Part shown: positions 30,257-37,028 of the stretch, piece by piece
How positions within the stretch are numbered: the first letter of the stretch is position 1
How the letters are laid out: each line of letters opens with the position of its first letter
Virus record (IMG/VR): IMGVR_UViG_3300032238_000336
Coordinates: 1-64,000 of that record
Strand: one strand, 5' to 3'
From: a virus
DNA length: 64,000 nucleotides
Notes under the pieces: generated by a model
Told to the model about the DNA's origin: nothing
Seen by the model: the letters and a program-made list of their open reading frames with translations, nothing else
Databases searched by the model: none
Program-made: the position numbers and the translations under genes

Positions 30257-32377
30257 AACCGTACCTACAATCTCAGAGAATGATACTCCGGTTCTTGTAG
30301 CAACAAATGTAAGATTGACAAAGTTAATAGACCTAGCAGGTTTAATATAAATATCTGCTTTAAATTGATTTGAATCAATAACATCTGGAGTATTATTACT
30401 TTCATCACAAACGATTTGGAAATCAGTAATACCTCTTTTTGCTTTAATATCACGGAGATATGGCTCAACGATATTTACAAAATTATTTCTTGTAATTGTA
30501 TCGTTGAATTCAAATAACTGACTTCTTGCTACTCTTCCAATTTGATTTTCAATAGTAAGGAATAGTCTACGAACGTTAATTCTATCAAATGCAGATACAA
30601 CATTAGAAGCTGTTTTATCCCCAAATAAAATAATTCCTTGACCTGGAGAAGCAATAACTGGATTTATTGCATTAGAGTAAAGCAAATCTCTTTGACTTTG
30701 AGATGGGTTATATGCAAGTTTAATTGCATTATTAATTACACCTCTGTTTGCTCCTGCGGGAGAATACCAAGGATACTGGACAATCGAAGTTCTAGCCATT
30801 AATCCTGCAACATCAGAATTGCAAGGAAGGTATAAAAATTGACTATTAAATCTATCGTAAGTATACTTGTGTCCACTATCAAATACAGCATAATTACTTG
30901 GAGTAATACCGGAAAAGAAATTTATAATATTTGCCGTTTGTACATTACTATCTGCAGTATTCAATACAGCTTCTTTTGGTGCAGATATAACTGCAATACA
31001 ATCTTTTCTAGTAGTTGCTATGTTGATTAATTCATTTGCCTTAGATTGACACTCTACTGAAGTAATTCCACCAGAAGGACCTGCAAGTAAGAAATCAATT
31101 TTATATTCTGCAGGATTTGAAAATACTCTATATCCAGTAACAATATCATTTAAAGTTACTCCATAGTTTCCTATTCCATTTGTATAATCAGTTCCACCTG
31201 TTAGAGAATATGATTTATTTCCAACACCAGAGAATGTAGTTCCTTGAGTTAAAGTTCCCCAATTTCCAGTATTTCCTGCCACATTAGAATATAATGTATC
31301 AAATCCAGTAGCAACTCCGTCTTCATTCTCTCCTACAAAAAGATAAGCAGAGTTTTCTGCAATATAGTTTTTATAGTAGATTTGTTGAGCAGGAGATAAC
31401 TTACCATCAATTGCTTTAGATAAATTTGGAAACTTTTCTACAATATTTCCAGCGGTTCCAGTAATTGCCCCATCATCATCAACTACTACGATATGAATTT
31501 CATCATTAGTAGAACTTCTTGCACGACCATATTCTGAAGTTCTTGGTTTTTGTGCAATAGATTTCCAATAAATTTTAGAGTTAGATAATCCTAAAGTTTG
31601 ATTATTATACCAATCAGAAGTGGTATATGAAGAAGTAGTTAATACTCCGACTCCGGAGTCATTGTTAATAGTTATACTACCGGAGTTTATAGATGTGATA
31701 GTATTTTCAGAATAATCAACAGTAACATACTCACCAGTAGAATTGCTATATTTTGAAACTATTTTTACATCAATAGAAGAAGTGCCAACTCCGGTAACGA
31801 TACCTTTCAAGAACCCGGTGTCAGTAACAACAGTTCCAACTCCAGCATATGTTGTATTAATTCCTACAGTAACTCCATACCCAACAACTATTGAACTGGT
31901 ATCAATACCACTTACAATTTGGTCTGCATATGCGTCAATAGTGCAAACTTTAAGTCCATTTGCCCAAGAACCTGGATTTCTTGAAGCATAATACCAACCA
32001 GAATAACCATCTGAATGTAAGTTATAATCAACTGCAGAGTTAATTTGTATATCAGTAGACCCACCGCCCACTGCGACATTAGAGTTAGTCAATGCTCCAG
32101 TAGAAGAACTATCGCATCTTACAACTACTAACTCCCCACCATAGCTAAGATAATTAATAGCAGATAGCCAATATTCATTTTGATTATTAGTCAAAATAGG
32201 CTTTCCAAAAATATTCAATAACTCTTGTTCAGTTCTAATACTAACAGGAGTATTTACTGGACCTTTTTGGAATGGACCACAAAGTGCCGCAACCTGAGTA
32301 TTGCCTACTGTTGTTCCCCCTACAGTTAAGTCAACTTCTCTTATATTAACTCCAGGGGACACTAAATTTACTGCCAT
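30254..32377 (-). CDS. 18: Tail sheath protein, T4 gp18-like
   Basis: The product has 707 residues (T4 has 659). The N terminus MAVNLVSPGVNIREVDLT and motifs ALCGPFQKGPVN, INYLSYGGELVVVR, DRINVRRLFLTIENQIGR and RFNSQFLYLPCNSDVAGLMA are those of contractile sheath proteins. Subunits surround the gp19 tube and contract on infection. The middle 250 residues are rich in Thr, Ser and Gly and form the variable outer domains. AGAGGTAA precedes the ATG and a perfect late box lies 37 bases upstream. Confidence 0.95.
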   Translation of the reverse strand: MAVNLVSPGVNIREVDLTVGGTTVGNTQVAALCGPFQKGPVNTPVSIRTEQELLNIFGKPILTNNQNEYWLSAINYLSYGGELVVVRCDSSSTGALTNSNVAVGGGSTDIQINSAVDYNLHSDGYSGWYYASRNPGSWANGLKVCTIDAYADQIVSGIDTSSIVVGYGVTVGINTTYAGVGTVVTDTGFLKGIVTGVGTSSIDVKIVSKYSNSTGEYVTVDYSENTITSINSGSITINNDSGVGVLTTSSYTTSDWYNNQTLGLSNSKIYWKSIAQKPRTSEYGRARSSTNDEIHIVVVDDDGAITGTAGNIVEKFPNLSKAIDGKLSPAQQIYYKNYIAENSAYLFVGENEDGVATGFDTLYSNVAGNTGNWGTLTQGTTFSGVGNKSYSLTGGTDYTNGIGNYGVTLNDIVTGYRVFSNPAEYKIDFLLAGPSGGITSVECQSKANELINIATTRKDCIAVISAPKEAVLNTADSNVQTANIINFFSGITPSNYAVFDSGHKYTYDRFNSQFLYLPCNSDVAGLMARTSIVQYPWYSPAGANRGVINNAIKLAYNPSQSQRDLLYSNAINPVIASPGQGIILFGDKTASNVVSAFDRINVRRLFLTIENQIGRVARSQLFEFNDTITRNNFVNIVEPYLRDIKAKRGITDFQIVCDESNNTPDVIDSNQFKADIYIKPARSINFVNLTFVATRTGVSFSEIVGTV

Positions 32378-32413
32378 TTGATTACCTCTTGAAGAAGTCT
32401 ATTTATCTATTGG

Positions 32414-32421
32414 TATTTATA
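32414..32421 (-). promoter_or_regulatory. Late promoter box TATAAATA for gp18-gp19
   Basis: A perfect late box lies 37 bases before gp18. A second variant (GATAAATA) lies at 32400-32407, closer to the gene. Confidence 0.72.
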
Positions 32422-32438
32422 AAAAAATAAACTTTCCT

Positions 32439-33611
32439 TTACATATAGTTCCACATATAAGAAGTGTCTTCCTTGCTATCAGCAGTAATCCAAGTATCTC
32501 CATCAGTATCGACAAAAATTTTTTCTTCTTCATTTAGTCCGTCTATTATAAAACCAAACGGTGTCATATCTTGTTCAATTTGGTCTTTCTGTTCTTCATA
32601 TATTCTTTTACGAACATCATTGTTCGTCATTTCTTTAAAATATTCTTGAACTATTAACCAAGAAAAAATTACCAAACACATTGCAAGGTCATCATTATAT
32701 CCATCATCTGCTTCAAAAGAATTATTTTTGCTGATAAATGTGGTAAGTTCACTTATAATATCATAATCTCGTATTAAGAGTTTGTCATCTTCTATAATAG
32801 TTTTAAGATTAGAACAACCTACCCGTTTTACTTGTTTAGACATTTTTATACCAAATTGTGATTTTCTTCCAGAAAACCCTTGACCCACTACTTGGCCTGC
32901 ACGACCTCTCATAGAGCACATCAGAACATTATCATACTCTAAATCCATATGAAGTTCTTTTGCTACTTGCTCTCCAATATCATTTACCTCAATTAAACAA
33001 TATGCGTTGTTATATGACTTTGCAACTTTTTCAATAACTGTTGAATATACAAACGGTTTAATTTCATTATTTCTATATTTTCCCACTACTTTATACGGAA
33101 TATTAGTTATATCAAATATTATAAATGCGTGATAATCATTTTCAGTTCCTCTAGATACATCAACAGTCATTAAATAGTTATGGTCTTCTTTAGGAGTTTC
33201 GTATACATCTAATCCTGCATTTTTAGTAATAGGTTCATCGAATATTAAAGTTTTAAGTTTTGCTGCAGTAACTAAAGTATCAATAGAACCTAAAAAGTTA
33301 CAGTTATGTGATACAATACTATTAGCATAATAGAGATTATTATTCCCTACATCTATGGGGTCATAAAGCCATATACCTTCCTCTACTATTTCATTATACA
33401 CAATTTCTTTACCATCTAATATATCACCAATTTGTAATTGTTCAGCTGTGACTTTAGATTTCCCGAAGGGGTGAGTATTTGAACACTTTATTTCTGTATT
33501 GTCATTAAATATTATCTGATGATAAAAAGGTTTATATACTTTCTGAATTCCTTTAAAATCTACAAACCCAGTTGGAGATAATATTTTATATCCAGAATTT
33601 GATTTAAACAT
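32439..33611 (-). CDS. 17b: Terminase large subunit (gp17), C-terminal half: split-intein IntC plus nuclease domain
   Basis: The product has 390 residues. Residues 1-103 are the C-terminal part of a split intein (see 33303-33611), ending SIVSHN. The C-extein starts at Cys104 (CNFLGSIDTLV) and runs 287 residues. The terminase nuclease is complete: first Asp in LMTVDVSRGTENDYHAF, Glu in CLIEVNDIG, last Asp in GYNDDLAMCL. T4 gp17 cuts the concatemer and fills the head; this half supplies the cutting activity. It must be joined to the half encoded at 34183-36054 by trans-splicing to give a continuous QEFE-CNFLG sequence. Its ATG lies inside the last codons of the endonuclease gene, so translation is coupled. 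Confidence 0.93.
   Translation of the reverse strand: MFKSNSGYKILSPTGFVDFKGIQKVYKPFYHQIIFNDNTEIKCSNTHPFGKSKVTAEQLQIGDILDGKEIVYNEIVEEGIWLYDPIDVGNNNLYYANSIVSHNCNFLGSIDTLVTAAKLKTLIFDEPITKNAGLDVYETPKEDHNYLMTVDVSRGTENDYHAFIIFDITNIPYKVVGKYRNNEIKPFVYSTVIEKVAKSYNNAYCLIEVNDIGEQVAKELHMDLEYDNVLMCSMRGRAGQVVGQGFSGRKSQFGIKMSKQVKRVGCSNLKTIIEDDKLLIRDYDIISELTTFISKNNSFEADDGYNDDLAMCLVIFSWLIVQEYFKEMTNNDVRKRIYEEQKDQIEQDMTPFGFIIDGLNEEEKIFVDTDGDTWITADSKEDTSYMWNYM
33303..33611 (-). mobile_element. IntC: 103-residue C-terminal fragment of an atypically split TerL intein
   Basis: Residues 1-103 of the downstream frame (MFKSNSGYKILSPTGFVDFK ... NTHPFG ... LYDPIDVGN ... SIVSHN) are intein blocks B to G. The block B His is in NTHPFG, and the end is the canonical His-Asn followed by Cys+1. 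The start MFKSN and the order of motifs match my memory of the IntC of the Ace Lake AceL-TerL intein, which is also about 104 residues with an N-fragment of about 25. Most split inteins divide instead near the C-terminal end, so this early break is the rare class. Confidence 0.9.
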
Positions 33612-34173
33612 GGTTCCAAGTCTTCCTCTCTATAACTTGTCTGATATTTTGAGGTGTTACTCCATATACTTCAGAATATTTAATAGAAAATAATTGTTCG
33701 TATGACATAATTTTTCCATTTTTCATCTTTTTTCCTACCCCATTTATTTTAATTTTCTGGTCATATAACTGCCTAAGACATATTACGATGGAAGCATCTA
33801 ATTTGGTCGGTCTCCAAACTTTACCTTTCCTAATATTACTAAAATGAGTAATAGTCTCTTCATTAAAGCACCCAGATTTATCTTTATTCCATGGAGTATA
33901 TCCTTTTTTTACTCCACCAATACCCTTCCTACTATATGATTCAAATCCCTCTCCACCTGGAGACCTATTCCATCCATCAGAATATGTATTATATTCTGAA
34001 ATAAATTCTATTTCTTTTAATTTAGCAATATTTTTATCTTCTGTTGAAAATATAATTTTAAATTCATGTAAATCTTTAGTATTTTTATGAGCACATCTTC
34101 TCTTATTTGGATTAATTGTTTGTCCAATATATTTAATTATATTATCTTGTTTCAAAGCGTAAATATAGTACAT
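33604..34173 (-). CDS. Free-standing GIY-YIG homing endonuclease within the split terminase gene
   Basis: The product has 189 residues. The GIY-YIG module has YYIYALKQDN and KYIGQT (residues 2-19), Arg25/26 in NPNKRRCAHK and a candidate catalytic Glu at 54 or 56 in LKEIEFISEYN. The C-terminal part (WNRSPGGEGFES, KKGYTPWNKDKSG, NIRKGKVWRP) looks like NUMOD3-type DNA-binding repeats. It lies exactly between IntN and IntC, starts 9 bases after the IntN stop and overlaps the IntC start by 8 bases. Homing would copy the endonuclease, and perhaps the split itself, into uninterrupted terminase genes. All catalytic residues appear present, so it is probably active. Confidence 0.9.
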   Translation of the reverse strand: MYYIYALKQDNIIKYIGQTINPNKRRCAHKNTKDLHEFKIIFSTEDKNIAKLKEIEFISEYNTYSDGWNRSPGGEGFESYSRKGIGGVKKGYTPWNKDKSGCFNEETITHFSNIRKGKVWRPTKLDASIVICLRQLYDQKIKINGVGKKMKNGKIMSYEQLFSIKYSEVYGVTPQNIRQVIERKTWNHV

Positions 34174-34182
34174 AGTTTTATT

Positions 34183-36054
34183 TTATATAGAACTGTATAG
34201 TTCTTCAAGTGTAATATTTTTTTCAATTCCATCCTTTAATATAGTAACCAAAGTATCTCCACCCAAACATTCAAATTCCTGTTCAAACTGTTCTTTTGAT
34301 GTGTTTGCAATCGTCTGTTCTTTCCACTTTGCATCCCTTCCTGGAACTTCAGACCAATGCACCTCAGTGGGAACGTATTCATTTTTACCTCGTTCTGCAT
34401 TTACCCACATCTTATAAAACATATTCATACCCTTGGGGGTAGAAATGATTATAACTTTTGTATTCTTACCTGAAGTAATTGTAGGATATACAGAACTAAA
34501 GAAGTCCTCTGCAATATTATTTTGAATGAACGCAAATTCGTCCAATACTAGAATATTGTATGCACCACCACGAACAGCAGAAGCAGATGTAGATGCCGCA
34601 ATTATCTTTGAACCATTATCTAGTTCTAATGATGCTTTGTTCCATATTTTAACCCCGTGCTGCATCCATTTAGGAAGGTTTTCATAAGCAAGTTGAAGCT
34701 TACCTAAAATTTCTTTAGCAGTTTGAGCTTTGTTTGCAAGAATAGCAATATTTACGTTATCGTTGAATAGAATATAATGTAAAATATATGAAGTAACAGT
34801 TGTAGTATTATGAGTAGGTATAAAAGTATTTCCACACAAGAATAAATGGTCTTCTGAATCTACTTTAATACAAGCAACAGGAACACTTTCTACTTTTTCT
34901 ATTTTTTGTATGTAATGCCGTTGTTCTTGTGGTCTGGTAGATTTAGTATTATTAATAGCATTTATTTTTCGGGGCAGATTAAATACACATTTTTCAGTAG
35001 TAAAAGATACCGTATGGTAATAACACTCTTTTATTTTTTTGCATCTTACTTTAGATTTTATTCCTAACGAAGATAGTAACTCAACAAATTGTAAAATAAA
35101 CTCATAATTTTTTTGATAGAACTCAAAGGACTTTGTATGGAGTTTTACTGAACCATCAGTATCCATCAATCCACGAAGAAGTTCTAGTCTATCTTCATAG
35201 GAAGACCTTAAATAATCTAATGGTATGTGTTTATTTTGCAATAAATTATAAGATTTTAATTTTGATTGCAATTCTTTTATTTTAAACCGAATACAATTAT
35301 TATCTTTTCTCTCATACTCCACATTCATTTTAGTTTTATAATACTCATAATCTTCTTTATGAGATATAATTCTCCCATCACGAGAGTATCCATCCCCTAA
35401 CCAAACACCTAGAAGATATGGGTCAATATTTAAATTCTTTTTAGTAAAATTGCAAGGATTTGATTTATTGATATATAATGTTCCTTGAACTCCTTTACCC
35501 CTAATATTGTTGGTTTTATTTTGATATCTATCAAAAATTTCACCTGAAGTTATTACTTTTTTACCAGTTCTCCAATATGAACTATTCACTTCCCATAAAT
35601 GGTCAGAATCTGCAATAATTTCTTCTCCATTATCAAAATATAATTTATAACAATCGTGGTTATACATAGTTTCAGTTTTCAGAATTACTGAAACTGGATT
35701 TCCAGAAGGAGACATAATTTTATCCCCTTCCTTAAGGTCTCCCATAGTAGTCCACCCATCAGGAGTAGGTATCGGAGTATCTAATGCTAATGCTTTCCCA
35801 CACTGCCTAGGCATTTTACAGATATTAAATCTGTTCTTATGAAATCTTTGAACTAGTTTCTCTTGAAACTTCCTCATTTTAAAAGGAACTACACCTTCGT
35901 CAACACTTACAATCTTTACATAATTTTTACAAAAATATAAAGGGTCTTTATTGCACTTTATATACTCAGCAATTTGTTCTTTAGTAAACTCCTGCTTTGT
36001 ATTTGCTTTTTTTAGATGAGGATTACCAAGATACTGTTCAGAAGGAGGGCTCAT
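34183..36054 (-). CDS. 17a: Terminase large subunit (gp17), N-terminal half: ATPase domain with P-loop intein and terminal IntN
   Basis: The product has 623 residues in five parts. Residues 1-87 are extein up to MPRQCGK, the first half of Walker A. Residues 88-416 are an intein with endonuclease. Residues 417-595 are extein beginning TTTVTSYILHYI, with Walker B NILVLDEFAFI and the coupling motif IIISTPKG. Residues 596-623 are IntN of a second, split intein, followed by a stop. Joined to the 287-residue C-extein at 32439-33302, the mature terminase would be 87+179+287 = 553 residues, a normal length for this phage group (T4 has 610). gp17 is the motor that packages DNA through gp20. The start overlaps the upstream gene as ATGA. 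Confidence 0.93.
   Translation of the reverse strand: MSPPSEQYLGNPHLKKANTKQEFTKEQIAEYIKCNKDPLYFCKNYVKIVSVDEGVVPFKMRKFQEKLVQRFHKNRFNICKMPRQCGKALALDTPIPTPDGWTTMGDLKEGDKIMSPSGNPVSVILKTETMYNHDCYKLYFDNGEEIIADSDHLWEVNSSYWRTGKKVITSGEIFDRYQNKTNNIRGKGVQGTLYINKSNPCNFTKKNLNIDPYLLGVWLGDGYSRDGRIISHKEDYEYYKTKMNVEYERKDNNCIRFKIKELQSKLKSYNLLQNKHIPLDYLRSSYEDRLELLRGLMDTDGSVKLHTKSFEFYQKNYEFILQFVELLSSLGIKSKVRCKKIKECYYHTVSFTTEKCVFNLPRKINAINNTKSTRPQEQRHYIQKIEKVESVPVACIKVDSEDHLFLCGNTFIPTHNTTTVTSYILHYILFNDNVNIAILANKAQTAKEILGKLQLAYENLPKWMQHGVKIWNKASLELDNGSKIIAASTSASAVRGGAYNILVLDEFAFIQNNIAEDFFSSVYPTITSGKNTKVIIISTPKGMNMFYKMWVNAERGKNEYVPTEVHWSEVPGRDAKWKEQTIANTSKEQFEQEFECLGGDTLVTILKDGIEKNITLEELYSSI
34186..34269 (-). mobile_element. 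IntN: 28-residue N-terminal fragment of the split TerL intein
   Basis: After extein residues EQEFE the frame reads CLGGDTLVTILKDG and ends after 28 residues. Cys1 and the xGDTxV pattern are intein block A. The fragment is very short, like the 25-residue IntN of AceL-TerL. The extein joint E-C is restored if this IntN pairs with the IntC that ends SHN-C at 33303. Confidence 0.88.
34807..35793 (-). mobile_element. Contiguous class 3-type intein with LAGLIDADG endonuclease, inserted in the terminase P-loop
   Basis: The 329-residue intein starts ALALDTPIPTPDGW (Ala1, not Cys) and ends FIPTHN before Thr+1. It carries the WCT triplet that defines class 3 inteins: Trp154 in DHLWEV (block B), Cys395 in VACIKV (block F) and Thr414 in PTHN (block G). 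Class 3 inteins start splicing with the block F Cys rather than residue 1. Two LAGLIDADG-type motifs are visible, YLLGVWLGDGY and LLRGLMDTDGS, so a homing endonuclease is built in. Splicing restores GK-TTT in Walker A. Confidence 0.9.
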
Positions 36055-37028
36055 ATACCTGTAAATAATAATGGTTTAGTTGGGTCTTTAATTGATGGTG
36101 CATAAGAAAAGACCGTTGCATTTGGATATATTTTTCTTATCTCAAATACAACTTCATCTTTGGTAGGTCTCGATGATTTAGGGAAAAATATTTGAACTGA
36201 AAGATGTTGACCTTTCCAACTCAATAAAACAGTATAAGTTAAACCACGAGATTGTATTCTTGTATATTCTTCATCTACGTTAGTTTTTTCTGTTTTATTT
36301 CCCCAGTTTGATGCACCAACTTTACGGCATTTGACAAGTGCTCCAGATGCATATGCAGAAGGCCAAATTTTATATCTACTTTTTACTTTATGGTAACAGG
36401 CATCCTTTTCACCTTTTTTTTCTTGAATGCATTCTTCTTGTGTCACAATCTTTGCATCTCCTGACCTATTTGGATTCGGGTCTTCTCTACGTTTTTTAGC
36501 AGCTCTCTCATCTCTTTCTTCTTTACTCATAGAGGCTCGAACATCAGCATCTCTGCAATATGGTTTAGTTGTTTGTCCAGGTTGACGGGCACAAGGTTTA
36601 CCATCATATTTTCCTCCAGTTTGAACCCATCCCTTAAACCAATCTCTCAAAGAATAATCAAGATCTCTCGGAGTTTTTCCATCCAATTCTTCCTTTACAT
36701 CTTTAAACTTTTTATGTTCTTTTTTGGCAGATGCTTCCATTTTTTTCAAACGAGTATAATAATCTGGAATTTCATCAAGATGCTGTAAAGCAATATCTGT
36801 TGCTAAAACTTTATCTTTGGTATGTTCGTGCTCAATGGGAATTCCCATTTCAAGTTGATGCTTTATAAAAGAAACATCAAGACGATGTTTTTTTGCAATT
36901 TCATTAACTGTTTTATATGATTTTAATTTTGAACAATTTTTAGTTCCGTGTGATGGGCAATATTTTCCCTCACCCGATTGATTACATATTGAAGTAGCTT
37001 CCAAAATAAACGCAGTAAAACTTTTCAT
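36051..37028 (-). CDS. Candidate internal head protein with capsid-targeting-like N terminus, between gp16 and gp17
   Basis: The product has 325 residues. It starts MKSFTAFILEA, like the T4 capsid-targeting peptide MKTYQEFIAEA, with a gp21-type site (ILE/A). Then come a Cys/His-rich piece (CNQSGEGKYCPSHGTKNC), a DUF5661-like part (MGIPIEHEHTKDK ... LQHLDEIPDYYTRL) and a part with the motif SLRDWFKGWVQTGGKYDGKP. CYHKVKSRYKIWPSAYASGA follows, and a C-terminal beta-rich domain (TYTVLLSWKGQHLSVQIFFP) resembles modules found in cyanobacterial and cyanophage proteins. It overlaps the gp17 start by ATGA. A protein packaged with the DNA and injected into the host is plausible. Molecular function unknown. 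Confidence 0.7.
   Translation of the reverse strand: MKSFTAFILEATSICNQSGEGKYCPSHGTKNCSKLKSYKTVNEIAKKHRLDVSFIKHQLEMGIPIEHEHTKDKVLATDIALQHLDEIPDYYTRLKKMEASAKKEHKKFKDVKEELDGKTPRDLDYSLRDWFKGWVQTGGKYDGKPCARQPGQTTKPYCRDADVRASMSKEERDERAAKKRREDPNPNRSGDAKIVTQEECIQEKKGEKDACYHKVKSRYKIWPSAYASGALVKCRKVGASNWGNKTEKTNVDEEYTRIQSRGLTYTVLLSWKGQHLSVQIFFPKSSRPTKDEVVFEIRKIYPNATVFSYAPSIKDPTKPLLFTGI

What the first reader, a model, noticed from the sequence alone, without database searches (positions are those of the whole stretch)
34807..35793. Class 3 intein (WCT triplet, Ala1) exactly within Walker A of a terminase
The intein starts with Ala, lacks a first-residue nucleophile and has Trp154, Cys395 and Thr414 at the places that define class 3 splicing, with Thr at +1. 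It interrupts PRQCGK-TTT between the Lys and Thr of the P-loop. Class 3 inteins are best known from DnaB helicases and a few phage proteins. The two LAGLIDADG motifs suggest an active homing enzyme.
Basis: partly seen in the sequence, partly recalled or inferred. Interest (0 to 1): 0.7.

Follow-up and report, generated by a model that had tools for sequence, protein, structure and literature searches.

The report
Twice-interrupted phage packaging motor gene
A marine T4-like phage's DNA-packaging motor gene is interrupted in its ATP-binding loop by a genuine class 3 self-splicing intein, a known kind of element at a known kind of site, and the same gene is also broken further on by a split intein, so the working motor can form only after two separate protein-splicing reactions.

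Summary
On the minus strand, a 329-aa in-frame insert (34807-35793) separates the Lys and Thr of PRQCGK^TTT in gp17, the T4-type terminase large subunit. It starts with Ala, ends in THN, and carries W67, C308 and T327 (W154, C395 and T414 of the ORF). These align one-to-one with the WCT triplet of crystallised class 3 inteins. The AlphaFold2 model matches Msm DnaBi1 (6BS8) at 1.4 A over 127 residues and PI-SceI over its whole length. C308, T327 and both LAGLIDADG aspartates are invariant in 70 of 70 distinct relatives.

The intein is ordinary as a kind: hundreds of phage records carry a relative, many in terminases, including T4-like coliphages at the same site. The family moves horizontally: one pair shares 96.5% intein DNA in exteins only 72.6% identical.

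gp17 stops after the 28-residue N-fragment of an atypically split class 1 intein (AceL-TerL/Cat type); a GIY-YIG endonuclease gene follows, then the 103-residue C-fragment and the rest of gp17. Functional terminase therefore needs one cis and one trans splice. Relatives carry up to three inteins. Nothing was tested biochemically.

The parts
35794..36054 (-). gp17 N-extein (87 aa), ends ...KMPRQCGK = first half of Walker A
   Evidence: 94% identical to uninterrupted L085
34807..35793 (-). Class 3 cis-splicing intein, 329 aa, HINT splicing domain with inserted LAGLIDADG homing endonuclease
35593..35595 (-). Trp67 (block B:12, W of WCT)
   Evidence: aligned to Trp67 of 6BS8
35650..35652 (-). Cys48, equivalent of the Msm DnaBi1 Cys48 that forms a redox disulfide with the catalytic Cys; Cys in 65/70 relatives
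34870..34872 (-). Cys308 (block F:4, internal branch-point nucleophile, C of WCT)
   Evidence: 70/70 conserved
34813..34815 (-). Thr327 (block G:5, T of WCT)
   Evidence: 70/70 conserved
35383..35424 (-). LAGLIDADG motif 1 (DPYLLGVWLGDGYS, Asp134)
   Evidence: Asp134 invariant in 70/70
35146..35187 (-). LAGLIDADG motif 2 (LELLRGLMDTDGSV, Asp211)
   Evidence: Asp211 invariant in 70/70; Pfam LAGLIDADG_3 E=6.9e-11
34270..34806 (-). gp17 middle extein (179 aa), Thr+1 to ...EQEFE; most of the ATPase domain
   Evidence: Pfam Terminase_6N E=7.5e-17
34183..34269 (-). N-fragment (28 aa, CLGGDTLVTILKDGIEKNITLEELYSSI*) of an atypically split class 1 intein
33604..34173 (-). Free-standing GIY-YIG homing endonuclease gene (189 aa) between the two halves of the split intein
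   Evidence: PHROG homing endonuclease E=8.5e-11; Pfam GIY-YIG E=0.0037, below the curated cut-off; top fold hits UvrC GIY-YIG and I-TevI, weak E
33303..33611 (-). C-fragment (103 aa incl. Met) of the split intein, ends ...SIVSHN; its ATG overlaps the end of the endonuclease gene by 8 nt
   Evidence: phmmer to Cat atypical split intein C-fragment 6DSL_B E=1.3e-41
32439..33302 (-). gp17 C-extein (Cys+1, CNFLGS...), nuclease domain
   Evidence: Pfam Terminase_6C E=1.2e-14; continuous with the middle extein in L003, L085

Best explanation
The insert is a mobile class 3 intein with a LAGLIDADG homing endonuclease, seated between Walker A Lys(-1) and Thr(+1) of a T4-type terminase gp17. Splicing (inferred from characterised relatives): Cys308 in block F attacks the peptide bond before Ala1, forming a branched thioester; the N-extein passes to Thr+1; Asn329 cyclises, assisted by His328 and Thr327; an O-N shift restores the GKTT P-loop. 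Spread (inferred from comparative data): the endonuclease cuts uninterrupted gp17 genes at the conserved P-loop DNA, and repair copies the intein in. The same gene carries a second, atypically split class 1 intein (28 + 103 aa) with a GIY-YIG endonuclease gene between its halves. One cis splice (restoring the ATP site) and one trans splice (joining ATPase to nuclease) are therefore both needed to make working terminase.
For: Shown by sequence and model: exact position, open frame and terminal residues; residue-for-residue alignment with class 3 structures 6BS8 (E 2.2e-26) and 6RIX, whose WCT roles are published (PMC6195587; PMC7664689); C308, T327, H65, H328, N329 70/70 and W67 69/70; AF2 model pLDDT 92.5 superposes on 6BS8 with Z 21.7, 1.4 A over 127 residues, 41% identity, and on PI-SceI with Z 26.8 over 314 residues. 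Function retained: dN/dS about 0.10 against the closest intein (0.086/0.835); catalytic Asp134 and Asp211 70/70. Mobility: the extein tree needs at least 9 changes of intein presence on strongly supported branches; L033/L035 inteins 96.5% identical in DNA against 72.6% for exteins; L106/L111 contigs, 94-96% identical, differ by exactly the insert; window/L003 intein dS 0.84 (0.64-1.13) against extein 0.38 (0.31-0.49). Second intein.
Against: No splicing or cleavage was measured here. The higher intein dS could partly reflect different rates rather than separate acquisition. The AU test does not reject common vertical descent of the inteins of the window, L003 and L064 (p 0.54), so recent transfer is shown for the family, not for this copy. 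Trans-splicing of the second intein is inferred only from homology.
Confidence: 0.93

Rival explanations
1. A class 2 intein or decayed class 1 intein: Ala1 is just a lost nucleophile, and splicing (if any) goes by direct attack of Thr+1 on the N-junction, with Cys308 a bystander.
For: Ala1 is also the class 2 signature (lack of a nucleophile at position 1; PMC7891396).
Against: All three WCT residues are present and conserved in block positions; the closest structures by sequence and by splicing-domain fold are the class 3 inteins 6BS8 and 6RIX; Cys308 is invariant in 70/70 while position 1 varies (A, S, P, M); dN/dS about 0.10 argues against decay.
Confidence: 0.03
2. The intein splices but its homing endonuclease is dead, and the insert persists by vertical inheritance only.
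For: For the window, L003 and L064 inteins a single vertical clade is not rejected. Cleavage was not measured.
Against: Catalytic Asps 70/70; well-ordered LAGLIDADG domain; sporadic presence and clear transfers within the family.
Confidence: 0.15
3. The second break in gp17 is not a split intein: the GIY-YIG gene simply broke the terminase into two genes, or the gap is a self-splicing RNA intron.
For: A stop codon ends the first ORF, and a homing endonuclease gene lies between the halves, as it would in an intron.
Against: The two gap edges encode intein N- and C-terminal motifs, the C part matching the experimentally studied Cat atypical split intein at E=1.3e-41; the same 28 + 103 aa split recurs in many relatives, and relatives without the endonuclease gene keep the two intein fragments; no Rfam intron at E<=0.1 in 32000-36500; L085 and L003 have a seamless EFE^CNF join.
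Confidence: 0.04
4. The P-loop intein is a kept redox switch: oxidation links Cys48 to Cys308, holding terminase off until reducing conditions return.
For: Cys48 is at the same position as in Msm DnaBi1, where the Cys48-Cys118 disulfide reversibly blocks splicing of a P-loop class 3 intein (PMC6195587); Cys48 is in 65/70 relatives.
Against: Conservation of Cys48 may be structural: every Cys48 mutant of DnaBi1 lost splicing. Close relatives lack the intein altogether (L085, L106), so no regulatory need is evident. The N-extein Cys at -3 also occurs in intein-free L085.
Confidence: 0.12

Closest known systems
Msm DnaBi1 (PDB 6BS8/6OWN) and MchDnaB1 (6RIX/6RIY) class 3 inteins
   Same: Ala1, Asp62, His65, Trp67, Cys of block F, Thr-His-Asn end; Cys48; HINT fold at 1.4-1.9 A; DnaBi1 also sits in a P-loop
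   Different: They are mini-inteins in bacterial DnaB without an endonuclease; this one is full length (329 aa) with LAGLIDADG, in a T4-type phage terminase
Class 3 P-loop inteins of T4-type gp17 in isolated phages: Synechococcus phage B23, Escherichia phages ELT3/kvi/ECD7, Klebsiella phage RaK2
   Same: Same gene, same GK^T site, full-length class 3 with LAGLIDADG; 66%, about 38% and 38% identical
   Different: B23, ELT3 and RaK2 show no split second intein in the stretches fetched; RaK2-like terminases' intein with LAGLIDADG was noted in PMC5259590 without a class
Mycobacteriophage TerL inteins (Kelley et al. 2016, PMC5050341)
   Same: Terminase inteins, some at the same Lys^Thr P-loop position (TerL1-a), some class 3 (TerL1-c, -d, -e); tested ones splice and two cut partner DNA
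   Different: Terminase_1-type proteins rather than T4-type gp17
AceL-TerL / GOS-TerL / Cat-TerL atypically split class 1 inteins (PDB 6DSL)
   Same: Second intein of this gene: terminase host, short N-fragment (28 vs 25-37 aa), about 104-residue C-fragment, Cys1/Cys+1 as in AceL; E=1.3e-41 to CatC
   Different: Here it shares its gene with a class 3 cis intein and encloses a GIY-YIG endonuclease gene
AceL NrdHF, the first split class 3 intein (PMC7891396)
   Same: Class 3 chemistry and an aquatic phage-like source
   Different: Here the class 3 intein is contiguous and it is the class 1 intein of the gene that is split

Membership tests
Class 3 intein | No Cys/Ser nucleophile at intein position 1 | tested here: met
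   Ala1; Ala in 62/70 relatives
Class 3 intein | WCT triplet at B:12 (N3:12), F:4 (C2:4), G:5 (C1:5) | tested here: met
   W67, C308, T327 align with Trp67, Cys118, Thr137 of 6BS8; 69/70, 70/70, 70/70
Class 3 intein | HINT fold with block B His and C-terminal His-Asn, nucleophilic +1 residue | tested here: met
   Model vs 6BS8 Z 21.7, 1.4 A/127 aa; H65, H328, N329 70/70; Thr+1
Class 3 intein | Splicing through a branched thioester on the block F Cys | not testable with these tools
   Needs biochemistry
LAGLIDADG homing intein | Two LAGLIDADG motifs with catalytic acids between blocks B and F | tested here: met
   Asp134, Asp211 70/70; whole-length match to PI-SceI; Pfam PF14528
LAGLIDADG homing intein | Cuts the uninterrupted allele and is copied in | tested here: inconclusive
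   Horizontal spread of the family is shown; cutting not measured
Atypically split TerL intein (AceL/GOS/Cat type) | Split near the N-end (N-fragment 25-37 aa, C-fragment about 104-115 aa) in a terminase gene | tested here: met
   28 + 103 aa; literature sizes
Atypically split TerL intein (AceL/GOS/Cat type) | Sequence homology to the experimentally studied intein | tested here: met
   E=1.3e-41 to 6DSL_B, C-fragment; N-fragment only E=0.26 to 6DSL_A
Atypically split TerL intein (AceL/GOS/Cat type) | Trans-splicing of the two polypeptides | not testable with these tools
   Needs biochemistry
GIY-YIG homing endonuclease | GIY-YIG catalytic domain | tested here: met
   MYYIY/KYIGQT motif and Arg25 invariant in 11 relatives; PHROG homing endonuclease E=8.5e-11; Pfam below cut-off; best fold hits UvrC GIY-YIG and I-TevI but E>0.05

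The most novel reading that the evidence does not exclude
The terminase is under a two-step post-translational gate. The class 3 intein restores the ATP site only in a reducing cell (Cys48-Cys308 switch), and the split intein must then join ATPase to nuclease, so that the order and redox dependence of two unlike splicing reactions time DNA packaging.
Probability: 0.07. Interest if true: 0.65.

Novelty: new member of a known kind. Interest (0 to 1): 0.33.

Why it matters
It adds a well-resolved, almost certainly functional class 3 intein with a natural comparison set (full, empty, and empty at both sites, at 94-99% extein identity). It also shows a phage-essential motor gene carrying inteins of different classes and different modes (cis class 3, trans class 1), with relatives carrying three, so terminase is a place where several homing elements coexist. 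Coliphages grown on E. coli K-12 or B carry the same class 3 insertion at the same site, which makes a laboratory test of its phage fitness cost, redox response and homing practical. A group of Ser1/Cys+1 split TerL inteins also turns up; one 2023 paper calls GOS-TerL the only known case.

Tried and rejected
A link between the extein Cys at -3 (PRQCGK), which could form a redox trap, and the intein: rejected, because intein-free L085 has the same Cys and most intein-bearing relatives have T, V or S there.
Incongruence of the window's own intein with its exteins by AU test (window+L003+L064): not rejected, p 0.54.
RNA intron in the gap: Rfam empty at E<=0.1.
Pfam and NCBIfam intein models give no hit above cut-off to the class 3 splicing domain; class was settled from structures instead.
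NCBI names such as 'replicative DNA helicase' for some ECD7-like hits look like annotation by intein similarity and were not used.
First alignment attempt of the GIY-YIG proteins failed because L026's copy has a stop codon.
Papers: no report of a class 3 intein plus a split intein in one terminase gene was found in 8 searches of an open-access library; that is weak evidence, since subscription papers are not held.

Full report
What is there. The window is a 64-kb part of a 73,399-base IMG/VR virus record with T4-type gene content: scaffold, major head protein, portal, tail tube, sheath, terminase small subunit, gp46-like SbcC subunit and DNA polymerase. Its nearest named DNA is that of Synechococcus and other marine myophages. 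The gene in question, gp17, lies on the minus strand.

Position. The insert splits MPRQCGK^TTTVTS, the Walker A motif, between Lys and Thr. L085, whose three extein parts are 94%, 99% and 95% identical to the window's, has no insert and reads CAGTGTGGCAAA|ACAACTACT through the same codon boundary. This gives the empty site directly.

Class. Position 1 is Ala. phmmer against the PDB finds the class 3 DnaB inteins of M. smegmatis (6BS8, E 2.2e-26) and M. chimaera (6RIX, E 4.7e-25) as best hits. The alignment puts A1, C48, H65 and W67 of the window intein on the same numbers, and C308, T327, H328 and N329 on Cys118, Thr137, His138 and Asn139. Those residues are the published class 3 WCT triplet and active site (PMC6195587; PMC7664689). 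Across 70 distinct relatives Cys308, Thr327, His65, His328 and Asn329 never vary, and Trp67 varies once; position 1 is Ala in 62, with Ser, Met or Pro in the rest. The AlphaFold2 model (34-sequence alignment, mean pLDDT 92.5, pTM 0.91) superposes on 6BS8 with Z 21.7, 1.4 A over 127 residues and 41% identity, and on the complete homing intein PI-SceI with Z 26.8 over 314 residues. The class 3 assignment is therefore as firm as sequence and predicted structure allow. The branched-thioester route itself is inferred.

Endonuclease and mobility. Asp134 and Asp211 of the two LAGLIDADG motifs are invariant in 70/70. Between the window and its closest intein (L003, 84% aa) dN/dS is about 0.10, so the protein is under purifying selection. 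Intein dS (0.84, bootstrap 0.64-1.13) exceeds extein dS (0.38, 0.31-0.49) in that pair, as expected if the two phages acquired the intein separately, although unequal rates could contribute. The family's mobility is clearer elsewhere. L033 and L035 share 96.5% intein DNA in exteins only 72.6% identical. L106 and L111 are 94-96% identical in DNA on both sides and differ by exactly the intein at GK^S. On a tree of 77 extein sequences, intein presence needs at least 9 changes on strongly supported branches. Loci were chosen by similarity to the query, so these are not frequencies. For the window's own intein a single vertical clade with L003 and L064 is not rejected (AU p 0.54).

The second interruption. 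The 623-aa ORF does not end where gp17 should. After ...EQEFE it continues with CLGGDTLVTILKDGIEKNITLEELYSSI and stops at 34183. A 189-aa GIY-YIG-type gene follows (33604-34173; PHROG homing endonuclease E 8.5e-11; best fold hits UvrC GIY-YIG and I-TevI with weak E-values). Then an ORF begins with 103 residues ending in ...YYANSIVSHN and continues as the C-extein CNFLGS... (32439-33611), whose ATG overlaps the endonuclease gene by 8 nt. The C-fragment matches CatC (6DSL), the consensus of AceL-TerL and GOS-TerL, at E=1.3e-41. The fragment sizes (28 + 103) match those atypically split inteins (25-37 + 104-115). Close relatives without this insert join EFE^CNF seamlessly. No Rfam intron matched in the region. 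So gp17 needs a cis splice to rebuild its ATP site and a trans splice to join ATPase to nuclease.

Wider picture. Among IMG/VR loci with both middle and C-terminal extein, 22 have the class 3 intein plus a second insert, 52 the class 3 intein alone, 3 (plus 1 with the first site off the contig) only the second insert, and 62 neither (query-selected). Eleven loci (L007, L014, L016, L020, L026, L027, L031, L032, L041, L060, L068) share the window's arrangement of class 3 intein plus Cys1-type split intein with a related GIY-YIG gene between the halves. Others have a Ser1/Cys+1 split version, some with no endonuclease gene between the halves. Six have a third kind, a class 1-like contiguous intein ending in Gln before TPKG; L077/L078 carry all three.

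Comparison with what is known. Class 3 inteins are numerous (1701 counted in 2020, PMC7891396). Terminase is the commonest intein host in mycobacteriophages, with P-loop insertions and class 3 members described, spliced and in two cases shown to cut DNA (PMC5050341). A class 3 intein in a P-loop is known from DnaB (PMC6195587). The same T4-type gp17 site is occupied in Synechococcus phage B23, the coliphages ELT3/kvi/ECD7 and Klebsiella RaK2. The finding is therefore a new member of a known kind. The combination of a class 3 cis intein and an atypically split class 1 intein in one essential gene was not found described in the open-access papers searched, but multi-intein genes as such are known (for example M. 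smegmatis DnaB with two, PMC6195587; a Campylobacter phage terminase with an intein and an intron, PMC3322345).

Regulation. Cys48, whose disulfide with the catalytic Cys makes Msm DnaBi1 redox-sensitive, is present here and in 65/70 relatives. This makes redox control testable, but the residue may be conserved for folding, and close relatives do without the intein. I rate regulation unlikely and simple selfish persistence most likely.

Noticed in passing
   Followed up: yes
L029, L035, L036, L059, L061, L073, L075, L077, L078, L088: A group of split TerL inteins with Ser at position 1 and Cys at +1 (GOS-TerL-like), a combination a 2023 paper (PMC10189870) describes as known only from GOS-TerL; L036, L061, L075 and L088 have too little DNA between the halves to hold an endonuclease gene.
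   Followed up: partly
L057, L062, L066, L079, L077, L078: A third intein site in the same gene, before TPKG of the ATPase domain: contiguous class 1-like intein starting with Cys where the start was read and ending ...LGHQ (Gln) before Thr+1. L077/L078 carry three inteins in one gp17.
   Followed up: partly
L100, L111 (and L109, partial): A distinct class 3 intein lineage at the same P-loop site, only about 46% identical, starting with Met instead of Ala; L111 and intein-free L106 are otherwise 94-96% identical in DNA.
   Followed up: partly
L026:3999-4565: The GIY-YIG gene between the split-intein halves contains a stop codon, so at least one copy looks degenerate while both intein halves remain.
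   Followed up: no
L171 (Vibrio phage VCO139): Related terminase intein with Asn where class 3 has Trp (NCT instead of WCT in this alignment).
   Followed up: no
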